A DNA stretch of 64,000 bases, taken from Auriscalpium vulgare. Lineage: Eukaryota; Basidiomycota; Agaricomycetes; Russulales; Auriscalpiaceae. Position numbers and translations under genes: made by a program. Shown piece by piece: positions 1 to 19,100 of the stretch (its first letter is position 1; each line of letters starts with the position of its first letter). Below the pieces are notes generated by a model. That model made no database searches, had not been told where the DNA came from, and was given only the letters and a program-made list of their open reading frames with translations. The stretch is taken from NCBI GenBank assembly GCA_019915015.1, contig JAHBBC010000001.1:1-64000 (forward strand). Direction: 5' to 3'.

Positions 1-1539
1 TATCGCCAGGGAGCCGGCGGCCCTCTAACAGACTTCATGCGCGCGCTGTATTCCAACATGTCCTATGTTTTGCGAGCCGATGGACAGATGTCGGACTCTT
101 TTGCGTCGGGACATGGTGTCCTCGCTGGTGACTCTGCGTCCCCCATGTTGTGGCTGCTGTTCATGGCGGACCTGGTCTTTGCCCCGGACCCCAATGATGT
201 GGTGCTCGACGGCGTGCCTGTGTCGCACCTGGAACATGCGGATGACATTGTGCTGTTCTCCCTCTCTCTGGAAGCCCTCCAACGGAAGCTCGACACCCTG
301 CAGGCGTGGTGCGCGGTGAACTTCATGCTCATCAATCGATCCAAGACCGTCGGCATGGTCTTTGGCCCGCTGCCCACTGTTCTTGCTCCCCTCCGGCTGT
401 ACGGCGATACCATTACCTGGAAAGCCGAATACACCTACGTCGGAGTGGCCTTTGGCTCCACATATGCCAATATATTCTCGCCGCATTTTGCGGTCAAGGC
501 GCGGAAGGCGCGTTCTGTTGCGTTAGTGAGCCTGGCCCTGAACGACCATGTCGGAGACCTGCCTCCCCGTGAGGGACTCCTGCTGTACATGGCCCGTGTT
601 GACCCGCATCTGACACATGGCTGCGACATCATCCCCGACACCGAGGAGCGTCTGCTCGCGCCGTTGCAGGCGGTCCAACACAAATTTCTGTGCCGTCTTC
701 TTGGGCTCTCTTCCCGCTCAATGTGCGCTTTCCTATTCACAGAGACCGGCCTTCACCCTCTGCTGTATCGCCGCGCAGAGCTTCTGCTGCGATATCTTAT
801 TTATGTGCTTCAGCAACCCCCGGGACGCTTGGTCCACCACGCGGTTCACGACTCCCTCGCGCTCGCTGCGGCGGGGCTGCCGGGTTGGATCTGTGACATA
901 GTCCATGTCCTCCGGCACCGTCTGCCTGTGCCCATGCCCATCCATTTCGTGTCCCTGGCCAGCACCGACGCTGTCGAGCTGCTTGTCACATCTCTCGCCG
1001 ACTCCATGCTTACCCACCTCCGCTCCGCTCTCGATGCGTCTCCCCTCGCAGAGTTACTGCTTGGCGGTTGCCTCGGCTATAGGGCGCCCGGCGTGGCCCC
1101 GCGCCCTGTGCTGCGCTTCCGCGAGTACCTATCGATTCCCATTCGCGACCACCGCATAGCGCTCACAAAGCTGCTCCTCTCCGATCACTGCCTTGCTGAA
1201 GTGCGGCTGAGATGGATCGAGCGCTATCGTCGTGTCGCTGTGCCCCGTGCATGGCGCCTCTGTCGGTTCTGTGAATGGACTGTGGAGTCCCCCGCCCACG
1301 CTCTACTGGAGTGTGCGGCGCATCCCCCGCTGCTCGCTGCTCGTCAGGAGTTTCTTGCCCTGTTGACTGAGCGCGCGCCGTTCGTGCGAGCACGCACCCT
1401 GGATGCCTCCGCGTGGTTGGCGTATCTCGTGACATTGAAGGATGTGTTACCCTTGATGGGCAGCTTTGCGTGCGACGTGTTGGAAATGTACCGCGAGCAG
1501 CCTATGTATAACTATGTAGGTCCTCATGTGGTGGCCTAA
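1..1539 (+). CDS. Non-LTR retrotransposon (LINE) reverse transcriptase, 3' part
   Basis: The frame is open from the first base, so the 5' end lies outside the window; about 512 residues remain before the stop. The protein runs through the second half of a reverse transcriptase: a GHGVLAGDSASPMLWLLFMA block, then the catalytic HADDIVLF box (the usual first residue Y or F is H), then the conserved CAVNFMLINRSKT helix-and-strand segment. Near the C-terminus CRFCEWTVESPAHALLEC gives a C-x2-C...H...C zinc knuckle, typical of the post-RT region of fungal LINEs. No RNase H or endonuclease domain is seen in what remains. The frame has no internal stop, so the element may be young. Family assignment is by motif reading; the clade is not determined. 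Confidence 0.85.
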   Translation, partial: YRQGAGGPLTDFMRALYSNMSYVLRADGQMSDSFASGHGVLAGDSASPMLWLLFMADLVFAPDPNDVVLDGVPVSHLEHADDIVLFSLSLEALQRKLDTLQAWCAVNFMLINRSKTVGMVFGPLPTVLAPLRLYGDTITWKAEYTYVGVAFGSTYANIFSPHFAVKARKARSVALVSLALNDHVGDLPPREGLLLYMARVDPHLTHGCDIIPDTEERLLAPLQAVQHKFLCRLLGLSSRSMCAFLFTETGLHPLLYRRAELLLRYLIYVLQQPPGRLVHHAVHDSLALAAAGLPGWICDIVHVLRHRLPVPMPIHFVSLASTDAVELLVTSLADSMLTHLRSALDASPLAELLLGGCLGYRAPGVAPRPVLRFREYLSIPIRDHRIALTKLLLSDHCLAEVRLRWIERYRRVAVPRAWRLCRFCEWTVESPAHALLECAAHPPLLAARQEFLALLTERAPFVRARTLDASAWLAYLVTLKDVLPLMGSFACDVLEMYREQPMYNYVGPHVVA

Positions 1540-13889: not shown

Positions 13890-16035
13890 CTAGTTTTCCT
13901 CCCGCACGCGCAGAAGAGTCATCGCCTTCTCCTCGGCGGCACCGCTGCCGCGCGCGATTTCATTGCCGTCATCTACACTCATCTGAGTCAAAAAGCGACG
14001 CCTCAGAGAGTCAGAGAGAGCGGCGGGAAGGAAGGTATTAAAAATGGATGATGGGCAAGGAACATTAAGTATCCGCGAAGATAATGGATTGCGCCTCAAC
14101 AAGCCAGGCTTGACACCGACACGCGCCAACGTGGCGAGCATGCCACGCAGAGCATCGAGGGAGCTCGTCGGGGCCTCAAACAGCCTCTTGATCGTGCCAG
14201 ACAAAGTGAATTCGATGCCGTCCACTGCGATTGCTACGCCACAGAAGAAAAACTGAGGTTCAGTGCAAAGAGCAAGGAAAGATGAGGGCTGTACTCACGC
14301 ATCGTCATCGCCTGACAGAGAGCGTGGAAAATCATCTTTCCAATGGTTTTCCCCTTGAATGCCGTGCGCAAAGCAGTCGAGGTCTTCACTGCCGATGTGC
14401 GGCCGACGACTGCCGTATTAGCAAATTCAGTCAAACATGGTGAAGGGAGGAAAGAACGTACGAGTTTATCGCAGTACGTCTACAGCATGCAGCGACGTAG
14501 GTACCGTAGAGGTCCAGGGTTTGGAAGACTGCATGTTGACTAGTTTGCCATACTCAGCTTTGCGTAGTGACCGAGCCGTCGACAGATGATAGAAACATGA
14601 CGGAGACATCCAGACAAGGCTTCAGGACAGGCAGATTCCGTACTAGTAGGACTTTTGCAAGCGCGCAGTACACAAGGCTGGCATTAGGTAGTAGATATTG
14701 TTGAACTCCTTGCGCGATAGAACAGCACCGCGATCAGCTCTCGGCAAGAGGATGGGTTACGGGCGTATAGATGTGTAGAAGGAGATTGTTTCGCCAAGAC
14801 GCCAGATTGCATAGAGCGAGCAAACGATGGAGGGAGGGTCATCACCGGTGGCTTGAAATGGCTCGATTTTATCGCAAGAAACGCAGTCAACTCATTGTTC
14901 AGGAAGAACGGAGCGCACCTGGGGAGAGTATCATCGTAGCGCCAGGCAAGCAGCTTGACAGTGACTGACACATTCCATCAGACTTGCTATACCATCGAAA
15001 AAGCCATGTTTGGAACTCACCGACACCGGGTACAATTGCATCCAATCTCAAACCCGAGCGCAGCAGGACGTCAGACAGATGATCCTGAGCCCGCAAAGGA
15101 TGAATCTGTTTACTCTGCCTCAGGGAGACTAAGCAGGACCCCACTGCATGCCGACCTGTGCCCGCGCCTTCTTTGCAGACCCTCCCGTCTCTTGCCATCC
15201 TTCCCTGCCCGCCGAAGACAAGGCGCCCTCCGGGAGATGCGCATTGCCTCGGGCGTGACGAACTCGAGCCCGTTGAACTAACACCGCAGGCAGATAGTAG
15301 ACTTGGGCCGGAGAGATCGTCGTTTCCGAGGGCGTGCATGGGAGGACGCATACATGCGCGAAGAGTGCCGAGGTGGTCGGTGCTGGAGAACAAGGAAGAC
15401 GACCGAGATGGCAATTCCGTCAAGACCTGTCAAGACCTGGGATTTATATTGTCCTGCACACGATGAGAGGTCGAGCGAGTACGAACAGGGCTGCTCTGCA
15501 GGTGGACAGTGACGAAAGATCTGTGCCAATGGTCGGTGATGTTGAGCACAAGGAAGATGGATAACTACGCACCTGAGGAACGTTCCTCTCCACCTGTCGC
15601 CCGCTGCCCGCTACCGTGACAGACATCCTGCGATAACGAGCATTGCCAGGTGCTGTCTTGCTGCTGATGACTATGGACGATGGTCAACGCTGTTGGGAGA
15701 TGGGACGGGCGCCAGATATTGCGCGTCTCGACTCTCGGCGTCGGGCGGCCGCGCACTACATAGCTTGCGCGCGCGTGTCGCTGTGCATGAAGATCTGGCC
15801 ATATATCGGGTTTTCAGCCGGCGCGCACAAAGACAGCTGTAACTCACCGACGACGTGCCCAACGCCGACACGGACGGGTTCCCGAGTACGCCCCGCATCC
15901 CTGAACACCGCCTCCAACGCTAATTGAGGCCCGGACGCTGTCAGGAAAACGCCAATCCGGTGGAGCGTGTTTCGGAAACGCGCGCGCGTGCGCGCTGGTG
16001 GACGGCTCTGTCAACTGGCGCGTTGTTCTAGTCTC
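13890..16035 (-). other. Unassigned minus-strand exon cluster
   Basis: Several minus-strand stretches look like exons with plausible splice sites. One around 15950-15850 contains HRIGVFLTASGPQLALEAVF. Another, around 15020-14900, joins LRSGLRLDAIVPGV to TVKLLAWRYDDTLPR. A third, from about 14400 through 13900, joins FKGKTIGKMIFHALCQAMTM to AVDGIEFTLSGTIKRLFEAP across an intron. The pieces do not assemble into one uninterrupted frame, and I do not recognise the protein. It could be a decayed gene or one with many small exons. Confidence 0.4.
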
Positions 16036-16044
16036 GTTCCCAGC

Positions 16045-16183
16045 CGTCATGGGGGTGTGTCCTTGCTCGCTGCGATATATGCGTAGGGAGGAGGGGAGCC
16101 GGGGCCGGGGATCACCGAGCGGAGATTAGAGTCGGAGGCAAAAAAAGGCGGTCAGGTACACTCGCAGGACACACCCCCATAAC
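16045..16183. repeat. 139-bp element with short terminal inverted repeats
   Basis: GTCATGGGGGTGTGTCCT at 16045 is mirrored by AGGACACACCCCCATAAC ending at 16183. The inverted termini are about 18-20 bp and the interior is non-coding. The right end touches the first base of the helicase/DUF6589 element at 16184, so it is either a tiny MITE or part of the same terminal structure. Confidence 0.6.
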
Positions 16184-16232
16184 GTCTGGGGCATTTCGTA
16201 TGGAGCCGTACACATACATCACAAACGTGACG
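16184..16232 (+). repeat. Left terminal inverted repeat of the helicase/DUF6589 element
   Basis: This begins GTCTGGGGCATTTCGTATGG, continues with TACACATACATCACA, and ends in GTGACG. It pairs with the reverse complement of 18004-18052, with mismatches mainly in three short blocks. Confidence 0.8.
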
Positions 16233-16384
16233 AATCGTTACATTTCGGTGACAACGCATGACCGCGTCGCGTCTGCACGTGATGGCCCGCGTCGCGTTGA
16301 TCACTGAAATTCACTTATGTAATAGTCGCGACGGCTTTTACAGAGTCGTCCGACGCGTTCCGCTTGCCCTTCAGCCTTCCAACC

Positions 16385-16923
16385 ATGCCCGAGGACGACA
16401 TCGACATCCAGGATTTCTCCGCAGAGCAACAGGCCAGAGCCGACAAACACGAGAGCCAGCGTCGGCGCTCGTATGCGCTCCTGCAAGAAGCAAAGACGCG
16501 CGCTGCCGCCAAGTCGGGATACAACTCGGCGCGGACGCGGCAGCAGATGAGCGAAGAGTGCGAGCGACGTTCGGGCGGTAAAATAATCCCGTATGACTGG
16601 CAGCTCGACGTCGCGGAGTGTCTGCTCCTCGGCGTCGACTGCGAGCTCATAGCGCCCACAGGCGCCGGCAAGACAATTCCTTTTGCGTTGCCTTTAATGG
16701 CCGAGTCGAGTTTGAAGGACAAAAAGACAATGGTGATACTGTCTCCCCTCAACGCACTGGAGGATGACCAGGTGCGTGTGCTGCTTATATGAGCCGGAGA
16801 TGATGCTGATGTGTCGACAAGGCGCGTCGCTTCCAAGAACTCGGGCTTCCCGCGGTAGCCGTAAACGGACAAACGTACACCGCAGACATTTGCGCATGGA
16901 GAAGACGCGCTTTGCGACATTGA
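16385..16923 (+). pseudogene. RecQ-like DEAD/DEAH helicase, N-terminal fragment
   Basis: Exon 1 is 16385-16771, the intron 16772-16821, and exon 2 begins at 16822. The peptide runs MPEDDIDIQDF..., then PYDWQLDVAECLLLGVDC, Walker A APTGAGKT, and motif Ia VILSPLNALEDDQ joined across the intron to ARRFQELGLPAVAVNGQTYT. This is the start of a RecQ-type helicase of the kind amplified in mushroom genomes. Helicase similarity ends near 16895 and the frame stops at 16923. Walker B (DExH) and the whole second RecA domain are missing, so it cannot be an active helicase. The ATG context (AACCATGCCC), the intron and the reading frame are all intact, so truncation was by deletion and not by decay. Confidence 0.8.
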
Positions 16924-17909
16924 GGTTGTCATAGGACATGAAGTAAGCGTGTTCTTCTATTGCTTGTCGGGCAGCGCTCATTGCCCGGTCGGAGATGTCT
17001 TCGATGGCGTCTACGGTCCACTTCGAGCTCATTGTCAGCCCGAGTGCGTGCAGGGCGTCGAACGCGCGCTCCGATAGTCCGCAGGATTTCAGGTAGATGG
17101 CCCACAGTTGTGCCATCCGGTTAATATGGTGAGATCGTGTGTACGCCAGCGACGCTACAATATTCATTATCACCTGTGCGTCACTCGTCAGTACTGCCCG
17201 GCATTGTGTGGAAGGGGCTAACGCGTACGTTGTTAGGAGTCTTATGTGTGTTGCGCGGCGCGGCCTGCTTCTCCGACCACCCAGCCCGCTGTAAGACTGT
17301 CCACAAGACCGGGGCGCCGTTCTCCGATTGCAAGGTGTCCGTTAAGTCGTGGAAATCCAGTCCGGTCAGTGTCTCGATTGAGAGCGCGTCGGCATCCTTG
17401 GGCGGCGTCAAGATGGGAGCCACCTTCTTCATCTCCTTCTCCACCATCTCCCCGACGCATTCCACTACAAATCTTCGCAGCACCGCGGGGCCCTTCTTCG
17501 CTCGACGACTAGGGGGCTTCCACCACCTTCGCAGCATGGGCACAAATCTGTCGCTGTTGAAGAATTGCGTACGCGCGGCCCGGATCGTCGGGTTGGCAAT
17601 GCTTTCTTCGTCTCCCCAGCAGACAGTATCCATCAGACTCGCGAGAGTGAGGCCTTGATTTTGTATGTATCTTATGGAATTGTATGCCGCAATCGAGCCT
17701 GAGAGCGTTCCACGAGGAACGTGTCGTTGTGTTTGCGCGCGCGGGACAGCTTCATCGTCTGATGAGCCTTCCGAGTCGGTGTCCGAATCGAAATTGTACA
17801 TTCCTGAGTCGTCCGTGTCCGCAATTGACACGTCGTCAGGATCAGAATCTTCGCGAAAGTCTTCGGGAAAGGCTGCGCGGAAATCTTCGTTGTCACTGTC
17901 GTCGGACAT
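16905..17909 (-). pseudogene. DUF6589-like protein, N-terminal fragment
   Basis: Exon 1 is 17909-17229 (227 codons, phase 0), the intron 17228-17174, and exon 2 runs from 17173 to about 16905. The N-terminus is very acidic (MSDDSDNEDFRAAFPEDF...). A middle part contains RFVPMLRRWWKPPSRRAKKG and ADALSIETLTGLDFHDLTDT. After the intron come IMNIVASLAYTRSHHINRMA, LWAIYLKSCGLSERAFDALH and the marker YDNLNVAKRV, which matches the region before DUF6589 proper in Agaricomycete proteins (usually YDNINF or similar). The sequence then runs into the antisense of the helicase fragment. The C-terminal DUF6589 core is absent. Assignment is from memory of the family pattern. Confidence 0.65.
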
Positions 17910-18003
17910 TGAGGGAATACGCCCTCGAAATGAAAACCTGTCATCTCTACAGTGGACATTACAAATATTGATTACGCAAATCCCGGTCACAGGTACGACA
18001 ATG

Positions 18004-18052
18004 CGTGACTGATGTGATGCATGTGTATGTCTCCATACGAAATGCCCCAGAC
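18004..18052 (-). repeat. Right terminal inverted repeat of the helicase/DUF6589 element
   Basis: Read on the minus strand from 18052, it begins GTCTGGGGCATTTCGTATGG and then ACATACACATGCATCACA. It lies about 95 bp upstream of the DUF6589-like start codon at 17909. Confidence 0.8.
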
Positions 18053-18449
18053 CTTGGAGGGGCGAGCCCGCGAGTGAACTTTACCTGCTTTTTTCGACTC
18101 CGCTTTTGAACTCAGCGGATCGGGCGGGCCGGCGCACCTCCAAGGGCTGGGGACGAGACTAGCGTTGTTCTCTTCTTGAAGGACGCAGCGGCTCACAAGT
18201 CTGTGATGTATGTAAGCAGATGTGCCGAAGGCCGGTCATGGCCGGGGCCGGCTGGCCGCATCAAAACGAAAACGAACCTCGGACGTCTCGTCGAGTGTAG
18301 CACGTTGGTGTACTGAAACCTATTGGCGATACATCGAGTGCTTGTTCGAGATGAGCTTTTGAGACAGAGGTGCAGAGGAATGGGGGACGTGGTGTGGGTG
18401 GTAGGACGACCGTAGGCGTGAGGAGGCGTGAGGTCAGGCGGGCACCACC

Positions 18450-18565
18450 GGGAATCAAACCGGGAATCAAACCGGCATTCGGCGACCATGACCGAATAGA
18501 TGCAGGCACCAACCCGAAAAACCCCCTAGTAAACGATTCAACTTCGTAAACTCAGGGAATCGTAA
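18450..18565 (-). repeat. Right copy of the ~115-bp inverted pair
   Basis: The reverse complement from 18565 begins TTACGATTCCCTGAG and matches 8993 onward. It contains a tandem CCGGTTTGATTCC doublet. The sequence immediately outside (from 18566) belongs to a different repeat family. Confidence 0.85.
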
Positions 18566-19100
18566 CGCAGGACCGGTTCTCACTGGGCATGAAGCTTGAG
18601 GCACGGCCAGATAAAACCCGCTCGCGCACGGTAGCTCTGCTCGAAGTGGGGCAGAGCCGCATGGTGCCTCGCCCTCATCTCAGTGCGCGCGGAGGAGCAA
18701 AAGGCGCGATGCGGAGCGGACGACTCGGAGGTGTGTGGGCGGAGAAGCGGCGACATGGTGGTCGGGAGGGAAGAGCGCTGGGGCAGGTGGGTAGGGTTGG
18801 GGCTCTTTATATATACGTGTGGTTTTGGTTGGGGGCAGGGGACTAGTAACAAGGGAGCAACGCGTTGACGCGTCGGCGGCACGCGGGAGCGAGACCAAGG
18901 ACCGCGCGGCTCGGGCTCTGCGCGTACTCTGCTCGTCCTCCCAGCTTGTCGCTCGTTCCTGCTTTGACTTTCCTGACATCCTGCCCGCAGCATGTGCTAC
19001 CCTGAAGGCGTAGCATGCGACCTTCACCCGCAACCGTCGGTGGCCTCCATCCATGACTCATTCATCCAAGTTATTCAGAACATCTAGAGCGCAGTCGCAC
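18566..19100. repeat. Shortened copy of the repeat block found at 24110-25490
   Basis: The order of conserved words matches the arm block: AGCAAAAGGC; GCGGCGACATGG; a TATA region; GACGCGTCGGCG; and finally a TTCATCCAAGTTATTCAGAA segment that parallels 25454-25482. The middle of the block is missing. On the minus strand the TATA box at 18805-18817 precedes an ATG at 18756, which opens MSPLLRPHTSESS...AFCSSART, matching the start MSPLF...AFCSSAD of the arm copies. Confidence 0.6.
18805..18817 (-). promoter_or_regulatory. TATA box in the repeat family, minus strand
   Basis: The minus strand reads CGTATATATAAAG, about 60 bases before an ATG at 18756. The right-arm relative keeps TATATAAAG at 61687-61695, 57 bases before its own ATG at 61744. 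The left-arm copy has lost the match. Conservation in two divergent copies suggests a real promoter. Confidence 0.45.

What the first reader, a model, noticed from the sequence alone, without database searches (positions are those of the whole stretch)
16184..18052. A TIR element pairing a RecQ-like helicase with a DUF6589 protein, seen as an internal-deletion derivative
Two inverted ends of ~49 bp enclose only the first parts of two convergent genes. A RecQ-like helicase (Walker A, motif Ia, one intron) enters from the left end, and a DUF6589-like gene (acidic N-terminus, one intron, YDNLNV) enters from the right. Both reading frames and introns are clean up to a shared breakpoint at ~16900. 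That is how a non-autonomous deletion derivative looks, and it predicts a full-length parent with both complete genes inside the same ends. I do not know of a described DNA transposon class with this gene pair, so it may be a new kind of helicase-bearing element.
Basis: partly seen in the sequence, partly recalled or inferred. Interest (0 to 1): 0.88.

Follow-up and report, generated by a model that had tools for sequence, protein, structure and literature searches.

The report
Deleted copy of helicase-carrying jumping gene
This is an internally deleted copy of a fungal jumping gene that normally carries a DNA-unwinding enzyme and a cutting enzyme; that kind of element (AcademH) is already described, but the evidence here gives the cutting enzyme's "unknown function" family (DUF6589) a likely job and shows ends that could fold into hairpins.

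Summary
The element is window 16029-18161 (2,133 bp), with termini TAGTCTCG...CGAGACTA and a perfect 9-bp target duplication. Four paralogous repeat copies show the site without it. An identical copy with a different duplication lies on contig C9. Inside are only the 5' parts of a RecQ-like helicase gene and a convergent DUF6589 gene, which meet at ~16888-16919.

The predicted parent type exists: C6:1702700-1719068 has related ends, a 9-bp duplication and both genes, convergent. A helicase match lies within 20 kb of 17 of 25 DUF6589 loci (13 convergent, 4 divergent). No parent with these exact ends was found in this assembly.

It is not a new class: helicase plus 9-10-bp duplications is what the literature gives for AcademH. 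Homology to Academ transposases could not be tested.

What the work adds: a structure model and conserved D317/D489/E733 point to DUF6589 being a DDE transposase (Hermes, P element, ISCth4, RAG1-like). Ends of the focal element and of most relatives examined carry stems whose arms vary but stay complementary; 6 of 8 ends folded beat shuffles strongly, the two C6 ends do not.

The parts
16029..18161 (.). Whole non-autonomous element (2,133 bp)
   Evidence: Exact edges of the 100% identical copy at C9:35046-37178; 17-bp terminal repeats; flanking 9-bp duplication
16020..16028 (+). Target-site duplication, left copy, GCGTTGTTC
   Evidence: single copy at the empty sites
18162..18170 (+). Target-site duplication, right copy, GCGTTGTTC
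   Evidence: single copy at the empty sites
16029..16045 (+). Left terminal repeat TAGTCTCGTTCCCAGCC
   Evidence: genome-wide pattern count 45 against 0 in the control
18145..18161 (-). Right terminal repeat TAGTCTCGTCCCCAGCC (minus strand)
16039..16063 (+). Left terminal stem, outer arm
   Evidence: pairs with 16166-16190, 92% over 25 nt; 0 of 100 shuffles reach it; DNA fold z -3.07
16166..16190 (+). Left terminal stem, inner arm
18133..18152 (-). Right terminal stem, outer arm
   Evidence: pairs with 18045-18064, 90% over 20 nt; 0 of 100 shuffles reach it; DNA fold z -4.82
18045..18064 (-). Right terminal stem, inner arm
16167..16238 (+).
   Evidence: 72 nt, 78% complementary to 17998-18069
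17998..18069 (-). Inner (subterminal) inverted repeat, right
16385..16771 (+). RecQ-like helicase fragment, exon 1 (Walker A GAGKT; lacks DEAH box and C-terminal helicase domain)
   Evidence: PF00270 42.3 bits; 43% to C6:1703348-1703728
16822..16905 (+). Helicase fragment, exon 2, cut by the deletion; intron 16772-16821
   Evidence: intron borders by eye
17229..17909 (-). DUF6589-family transposase fragment, exon 1 (acidic N-terminus)
   Evidence: 34% to C6:1717829-1718644 over residues 66-313, which spans exons 1 and 2
16919..17173 (-). DUF6589-family fragment, exon 2, ending just after the first catalytic Asp (YDNLN); second Asp and Glu are missing; intron 17174-17228
   Evidence: intron borders by eye
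16888..16919 (.). Deletion junction (interval)
   Evidence: homology limits of the two genes

Best explanation
A non-autonomous, internally deleted copy of a cut-and-paste DNA transposon of the AcademH kind. The full-length element carries a RecQ-like SF2 helicase and a DUF6589 protein that is its DDE transposase. Shown here: the element boundaries, 9-bp duplications, paralogous empty sites, two identical copies at different sites, a full-length-sized relative with the convergent gene pair, and conserved DDE residues in a modelled transposase-like fold. Inferred: an autonomous copy that is now absent or unassembled supplied transposase in trans; the transposase pairs the ends and cuts both strands; and it joins them with a 9-bp stagger. 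The helicase's job is inferred too: it may open or clear the terminal stems or aid gap repair. The internal deletion probably arose in interrupted gap repair after excision, and the deleted copy then moved again, giving the identical C1 and C9 copies.
Confidence: 0.87

Rival explanations
1. A new class of helicase-bearing transposon, unrelated to Academ: DUF6589 would be a DDE family of its own, with the helicase acquired independently.
For: DUF6589 could not be tied to an Academ transposase by sequence here; Pfam still calls it unknown, and no paper in the held library contains the term DUF6589. Homologues with a named source are all Agaricomycetes as far as I recall their taxonomy (capped candidate lists), whereas AcademH is reported also from Ascomycota and Mucoromycota and from animals (title of Kojima 2020).
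Against: The two traits the literature uses for AcademH, a helicase and 9- or 10-bp duplications, are both met, and AcademH is reported from Basidiomycota. Two independent lineages with the same pair of rare traits in the same fungi is the less simple reading.
Confidence: 0.12
2. A hAT-like transposon: TAG...CTA termini and a Hermes-like fold, with the helicase as accidental cargo.
Against: Duplications are 9 bp, not 8; the only Pfam match is DUF6589. A helicase match lies near 17 of 25 DUF6589 loci, so it is hardly accidental. Z to P element, ISCth4 and RAG1 is not far behind.
Confidence: 0.03
3. Not a transposon: two chance gene fragments between repeats near a contig end, copied to C9 by segmental duplication.
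For: The locus lies 16 kb from the end of contig C1, and the C9 copy 35 kb from the start of C9.
Against: Identity to C9 stops exactly at the termini, and the two copies have different 9-bp duplications and flanks. Empty sites exist, and the same ends bound gene-bearing elements elsewhere.
Confidence: 0.01

Closest known systems
AcademH (helicase-bearing lineage of the Academ superfamily; Kojima 2020, Mob DNA 11:15, not readable here)
   Same: Helicase gene, 9-bp duplications, fungal host; terminal inverted repeats and a DDE-type transposase (expected for Academ, recalled)
   Different: Whether the transposase is the same protein family could not be tested; whether paired terminal stems are described for AcademH is unknown to me
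AcademX
   Same: Would be the sister lineage in the Academ superfamily
   Different: Encodes a nuclease (XPG type recalled) and makes 3-4-bp duplications; here 9 bp
hAT (Hermes)
   Same: Best fold match of the DUF6589 model; TAG-type termini (recalled)
   Different: 9-bp instead of 8-bp duplications; a helicase gene; no hAT Pfam match
P element, ISCth4, RAG1
   Different: No sequence-family relation shown; gene content and ends differ
KolobokH (other helicase-bearing transposon superfamily, named in PMC10799480)
   Same: Carries a helicase
   Different: Kolobok targets TTAA (recalled); here the 9-bp duplications are varied sequences
Helitron
   Same: Encodes a helicase; palindromic stem near one end (recalled)
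   Different: Helitrons have neither TIRs nor target duplications (recalled); this element has both

Membership tests
AcademH | Encodes a helicase | tested here: met
   C6 relative: DEAD 76.1 bits and Helicase_C 55.5 bits, recQ_fam 176.8 bits, under its cut-off. The focal copy keeps only a DEAD N-terminal fragment
AcademH | 9- or 10-bp target-site duplication | tested here: met
   9 bp, perfect at 12 of 15 sites with both ends in hand, one mismatch at 1, absent at 2; rule taken from PMC10045372
AcademH | Transposase homologous to the Academ superfamily | not testable with these tools
   No Academ profile or Repbase entry available; Kojima 2020 not held
AcademH | DDE/D transposase fold and residues | tested here: met
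   Model and fold search; conserved D/D/E columns. Computed, not biochemical; spatial closeness of the residues not measured
AcademH | Terminal inverted repeats | tested here: met
   17-bp TIR at both termini
AcademX | 3- or 4-bp target-site duplication | tested here: not met
   9 bp
AcademX | XPG-type nuclease gene | not tested
   No XPG search was run, and about 9 kb of the C6 relative is unread
hAT | 8-bp target-site duplication | tested here: not met
   9 bp at sites with different sequences; the 8-bp rule is stated in PMC12730594 (passages), which also reports 5-7-bp hAT groups
hAT | hAT transposase sequence family | tested here: inconclusive
KolobokH | TTAA target-site duplication (recalled) | tested here: not met
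   Duplications are varied 9-mers
PF20231 (DUF6589) | Profile match over curated cut-off | tested here: met
   C6 relative 402.7 bits against cut-off 27. The window fragment itself has none, as it lacks nearly all of the region the profile covers

The most novel reading that the evidence does not exclude
The ends of these elements are recognised partly as structure. About 10 bp inside the terminus an outer arm pairs with an inner arm 21-118 nt further in. The variable part of the arms differs between the left and right end of the focal element (6 of 10 positions) and between lineages, yet mostly stays complementary to its own partner. The element-borne RecQ-like helicase would extrude, hold or resolve these stems during synapsis and cutting by a DUF6589 DDE transposase: a helicase-assisted, hairpin-end cut-and-paste mechanism.
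Probability: 0.35. Interest if true: 0.75.

Novelty: new member of a known kind. Interest (0 to 1): 0.5.

Why it matters
It gives a likely function, DDE transposase, to Pfam's DUF6589, a 'family of unknown function' found here in many Agaricomycete gene models, which may therefore be transposon genes annotated as host genes. It shows that a single genome holds full-length-sized, divergent, deleted and ~100-250-bp forms of one helicase-bearing transposon group. It also points to paired stems at many of the ends as a concrete clue to why a cut-and-paste element would carry a RecQ-like helicase, which can be tested with purified proteins and end mutants.

Tried and rejected
Parent search: DNA and protein searches of the own genome found no full-length copy of the focal family, only two identical derivatives and end-only copies. 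The tool scores only the best candidates, so this is not proof of absence.

1,377-bp copies as many independent jumps: rejected. The 8 copies whose two ends could be compared share one duplication (AGCCAGCTA) and near-identical near flanks (100 bp on each side at 99-100%, 500 bp on the left; 500 bp on the right drops to 67-68% in the 7 compared with the reference copy), so they are one insertion amplified inside a host repeat. A ninth (C4:900026) has only its right end in the fetched stretch.

Convergent-only rule: rejected. Four of the 17 paired DUF6589 loci are divergent; C14 and C49 are near-identical duplicates (99.98% over 4,170 bases), and C38:48903 shares its helicase with a second DUF6589 locus.

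In one search I left out 18 of 63 helicase rows (the short 1,377-bp copies).

The looser end pattern TAGNCTCGNNNCCAG gave 104 matches against 53 in its reversed control (100 places listed), so many single matches are chance; I used it only to find pairs that bound gene loci.

Nested retroelement in the unread middle of C6: the RVT_1 search scored 150 of 293 candidates, none of the listed ones inside C6:1705801-1715014. Not conclusive.

C38 element ends: not found by the inverted-repeat and duplication scan; the right end of the C7:47823 element was not found by the pattern.

Stem test: of 16 ends examined, C25R has no inner arm and the two ends of the 140-bp C13 element lack their own inner arms; these three were left out, as were three ends that repeat an included stem (C13R, C20L, C6dR). 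The permutation used 8 of the 10 ends typed (not C13L and C6dL). C7L pairs at 3 of 10 without gaps there, no better than cross pairs, though it folds well with a bulge. The outer arm of C6fL fits the inner arm of C6fR as well as its own. Of 8 ends folded as DNA, 6 beat shuffles clearly and the two C6:1702700-1719068 ends do not (z +0.32, +0.30). In one search, C6 and C27 ends did not stand out from shuffles either.

First motif regexes for the triad were too strict and were replaced by a profile alignment.

Literature: DUF6589 0 papers; RecQ helicase with transposon and Agaricomycetes 4; AcademH 7 papers, of which passages of five were read and two off-topic ones were not opened; a loose Academ search returned mostly off-topic papers; Academ superfamily 3; Academ with XPG and transposase 0; cut-and-paste transposons in fungi 27, seen as a listing of 20; five-term search 1 Helitron paper. 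Papers were seen as passages only or as listings.

Full report
Check of the observation. The window segment holds a real element, but its termini are 16029 and 18161, not 16184 and 18052. The window element and a copy at C9:35046-37178 are identical over all 2,133 bases, and their similarity stops exactly at these positions. The termini read TAGTCTCG...CGAGACTA, with 17-bp terminal repeats. The flanks carry a perfect 9-bp duplication, GCGTTGTTC here and AATTAGCGG at C9. The pattern TAGTCTCGNNNCCAGCC occurs 45 times in the 51.6-Mb genome and 0 times in the reversed control.

Empty site. The element sits in a repeat. Four other copies of that repeat (C26 twice, C8, C10) lack the element and show one copy of the target. 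The two C26 copies match GTCAACTGGCGCGTTGTTCTCTTC exactly, C8 differs at one base and C10 at two. These are paralogous sites, not the same locus in another strain.

Contents. The left gene fragment is a DEAD-box helicase N-terminus (42.3 bits) with Walker A GAGKT. The right fragment matches no Pfam family by itself, but aligns with the start of a DUF6589 gene at C6 and with a Mycena DUF6589 protein (37% over 97%). Homology of the two genes ends at about 16887 and at 16919, so the deletion junction lies between. The transposase fragment stops just after its first catalytic aspartate, so two of the three catalytic residues are missing. The helicase lacks its DEAH box and C-terminal domain. Neither product could work alone, so the copy was probably moved by proteins supplied from elsewhere (inference).

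Relatives in the same genome. Other elements with the same ends lie at C13:1520991-1522646, C21:81812-83471, C20:700373-702108 and C7:966274-967529, each with its own 9-bp duplication. Beyond the ends (about 155-203 bp on the left, 158 bp on the right) their interiors show no DNA similarity to the focal one; what those interiors encode was not tested. At C4:2217377-2217896 two tiny derivatives of 257 and 254 bp lie head to tail, with GGTTTGCTC before, between and after them. A full-length-sized relative, C6:1702700-1719068, has TAGTCTCGGAACCAGCC ends and duplication TAGAAGATC. It has a RecQ-like helicase gene (DEAD 76.1, Helicase_C 55.5 bits; recQ_fam 176.8 bits, below its cut-off) and, 11.3 kb away and convergent, a DUF6589 gene (402.7 bits; distance). 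About 9 kb between them could not be fetched. A 1,377-bp family is a deleted derivative of that type (helicase pieces 75-85%, DUF6589 residues 1-170 83%). The 8 copies whose both ends were compared share duplication and near flanks, so they count as one insertion.

Gene pairing. PF20231 gave 43 matches that form 25 loci; the C6 helicase gave 63 matches, of which 45 (without the short copies) form 35 loci. A helicase match lies within 20 kb of 17 of the 25 DUF6589 loci (13 convergent, 4 divergent, 8 without) and within 5 kb of 12 of 25, against 0.68 and 0.17 expected for random placement. Some of these matches are weak (E up to 7e-4), two loci are duplicates of each other and one pair shares a helicase. 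The looser pattern TAGNCTCGNNNCCAG (104 matches, 53 in its control) bounds three divergent elements: C49:95579-103141 (duplication GAAGATACC; the duplicate C14 copy starts at 135413), C20:906423-915704 (CGGTAAAGT; a second left end with the same flank lies at 908250) and C6:19682-27978 (GGAATCTGC/GGAATTTGC, one mismatch). For the convergent C7 pair only the left end, 47823, was found. Over the 15 sites with both ends in hand, 12 have perfect 9-bp duplications, 1 has one mismatch, and 2 have none (the 102-bp C5/C73 element and a 384-bp C25 element).

Terminal stems. Each end of the focal element has an outer arm that pairs with an inner arm: left 25 nt at 92%, right 20 nt at 90%, reached by 0 of 100 shuffles each. 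Their variable parts differ between left and right at 6 of 10 positions, with four pairs changed on both sides. Across eight stem types, own arms match at 62 of 80 variable positions, and 1 of 40,320 reassignments reaches that. Homologous ends C20R and C6dL differ by one T-A to C-G pair changed on both sides. Folded as single-stranded DNA, 6 of 8 ends are far more stable than dinucleotide shuffles: window left z -3.07 (1 of 200 shuffles as good), window right -4.82, C6:19682 -5.94, C7 -6.57, C14 -5.04, C25 left -7.98 (0 of 200 each). Against this: the two ends of C6:1702700-1719068, the main full-length relative, are no better than shuffles (z +0.32 and +0.30), three of 16 ends lack an inner arm of their own, the eight types were chosen by me, and whether such stems form in the cell is unknown. 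The link to the helicase is inference.

What is known. PMC10045372 states that AcademH makes 9- or 10-bp and AcademX 3- or 4-bp duplications, seemingly related to the helicase or nuclease they encode. PMC10799480 reports AcademH from Basidiomycota, Ascomycota and Mucoromycota. The primary paper was not readable. The element therefore works like AcademH and meets the testable traits; formal membership needs the transposase comparison. No held paper contains DUF6589, so the DDE assignment may be new, but this rests on that one library.

Verdict. The claim of a new class is not supported.

Noticed in passing
C4:2217377-2217896 (L043): Two different ~250-bp deletion derivatives in direct tandem with the same 9-bp duplication before, between and after them (GGTTTGCTC three times). 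Suggests repeat insertion into the same target or a tandem intermediate.
   Followed up: partly
C27, C13 (three), C52, C12, C10, C2 copies (L070, L072-L078): A 1,377-bp derivative is embedded at one fixed place in a larger repeat that has itself multiplied; near flanks are near-identical and all 8 compared copies share duplication AGCCAGCTA.
   Followed up: partly
C5:1911062-1911163 and C73:11029-11130 (L087, L088): 102-bp miniature element made of little more than the two ends, in two copies with identical near flanks and no target duplication.
   Followed up: partly
window 15763-16009 and 18187-18567: The element sits in a multi-copy repeat (copies at C26, C8, C10, C23 and others); its right part, window 18446-18566, has many short partial copies.
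   Followed up: partly
window 1-300: The contig starts in what reads by eye like a reverse-transcriptase-type ORF (HADD motif), so the contig end may lie in a retroelement and not at a telomere.
   Followed up: no
C1:16 kb, C9:35 kb, C7:48-52 kb, C6:20-28 kb, C12:65-73 kb: Several elements of this group lie within 75 kb of a contig end; possible enrichment towards chromosome ends, not tested.
   Followed up: no
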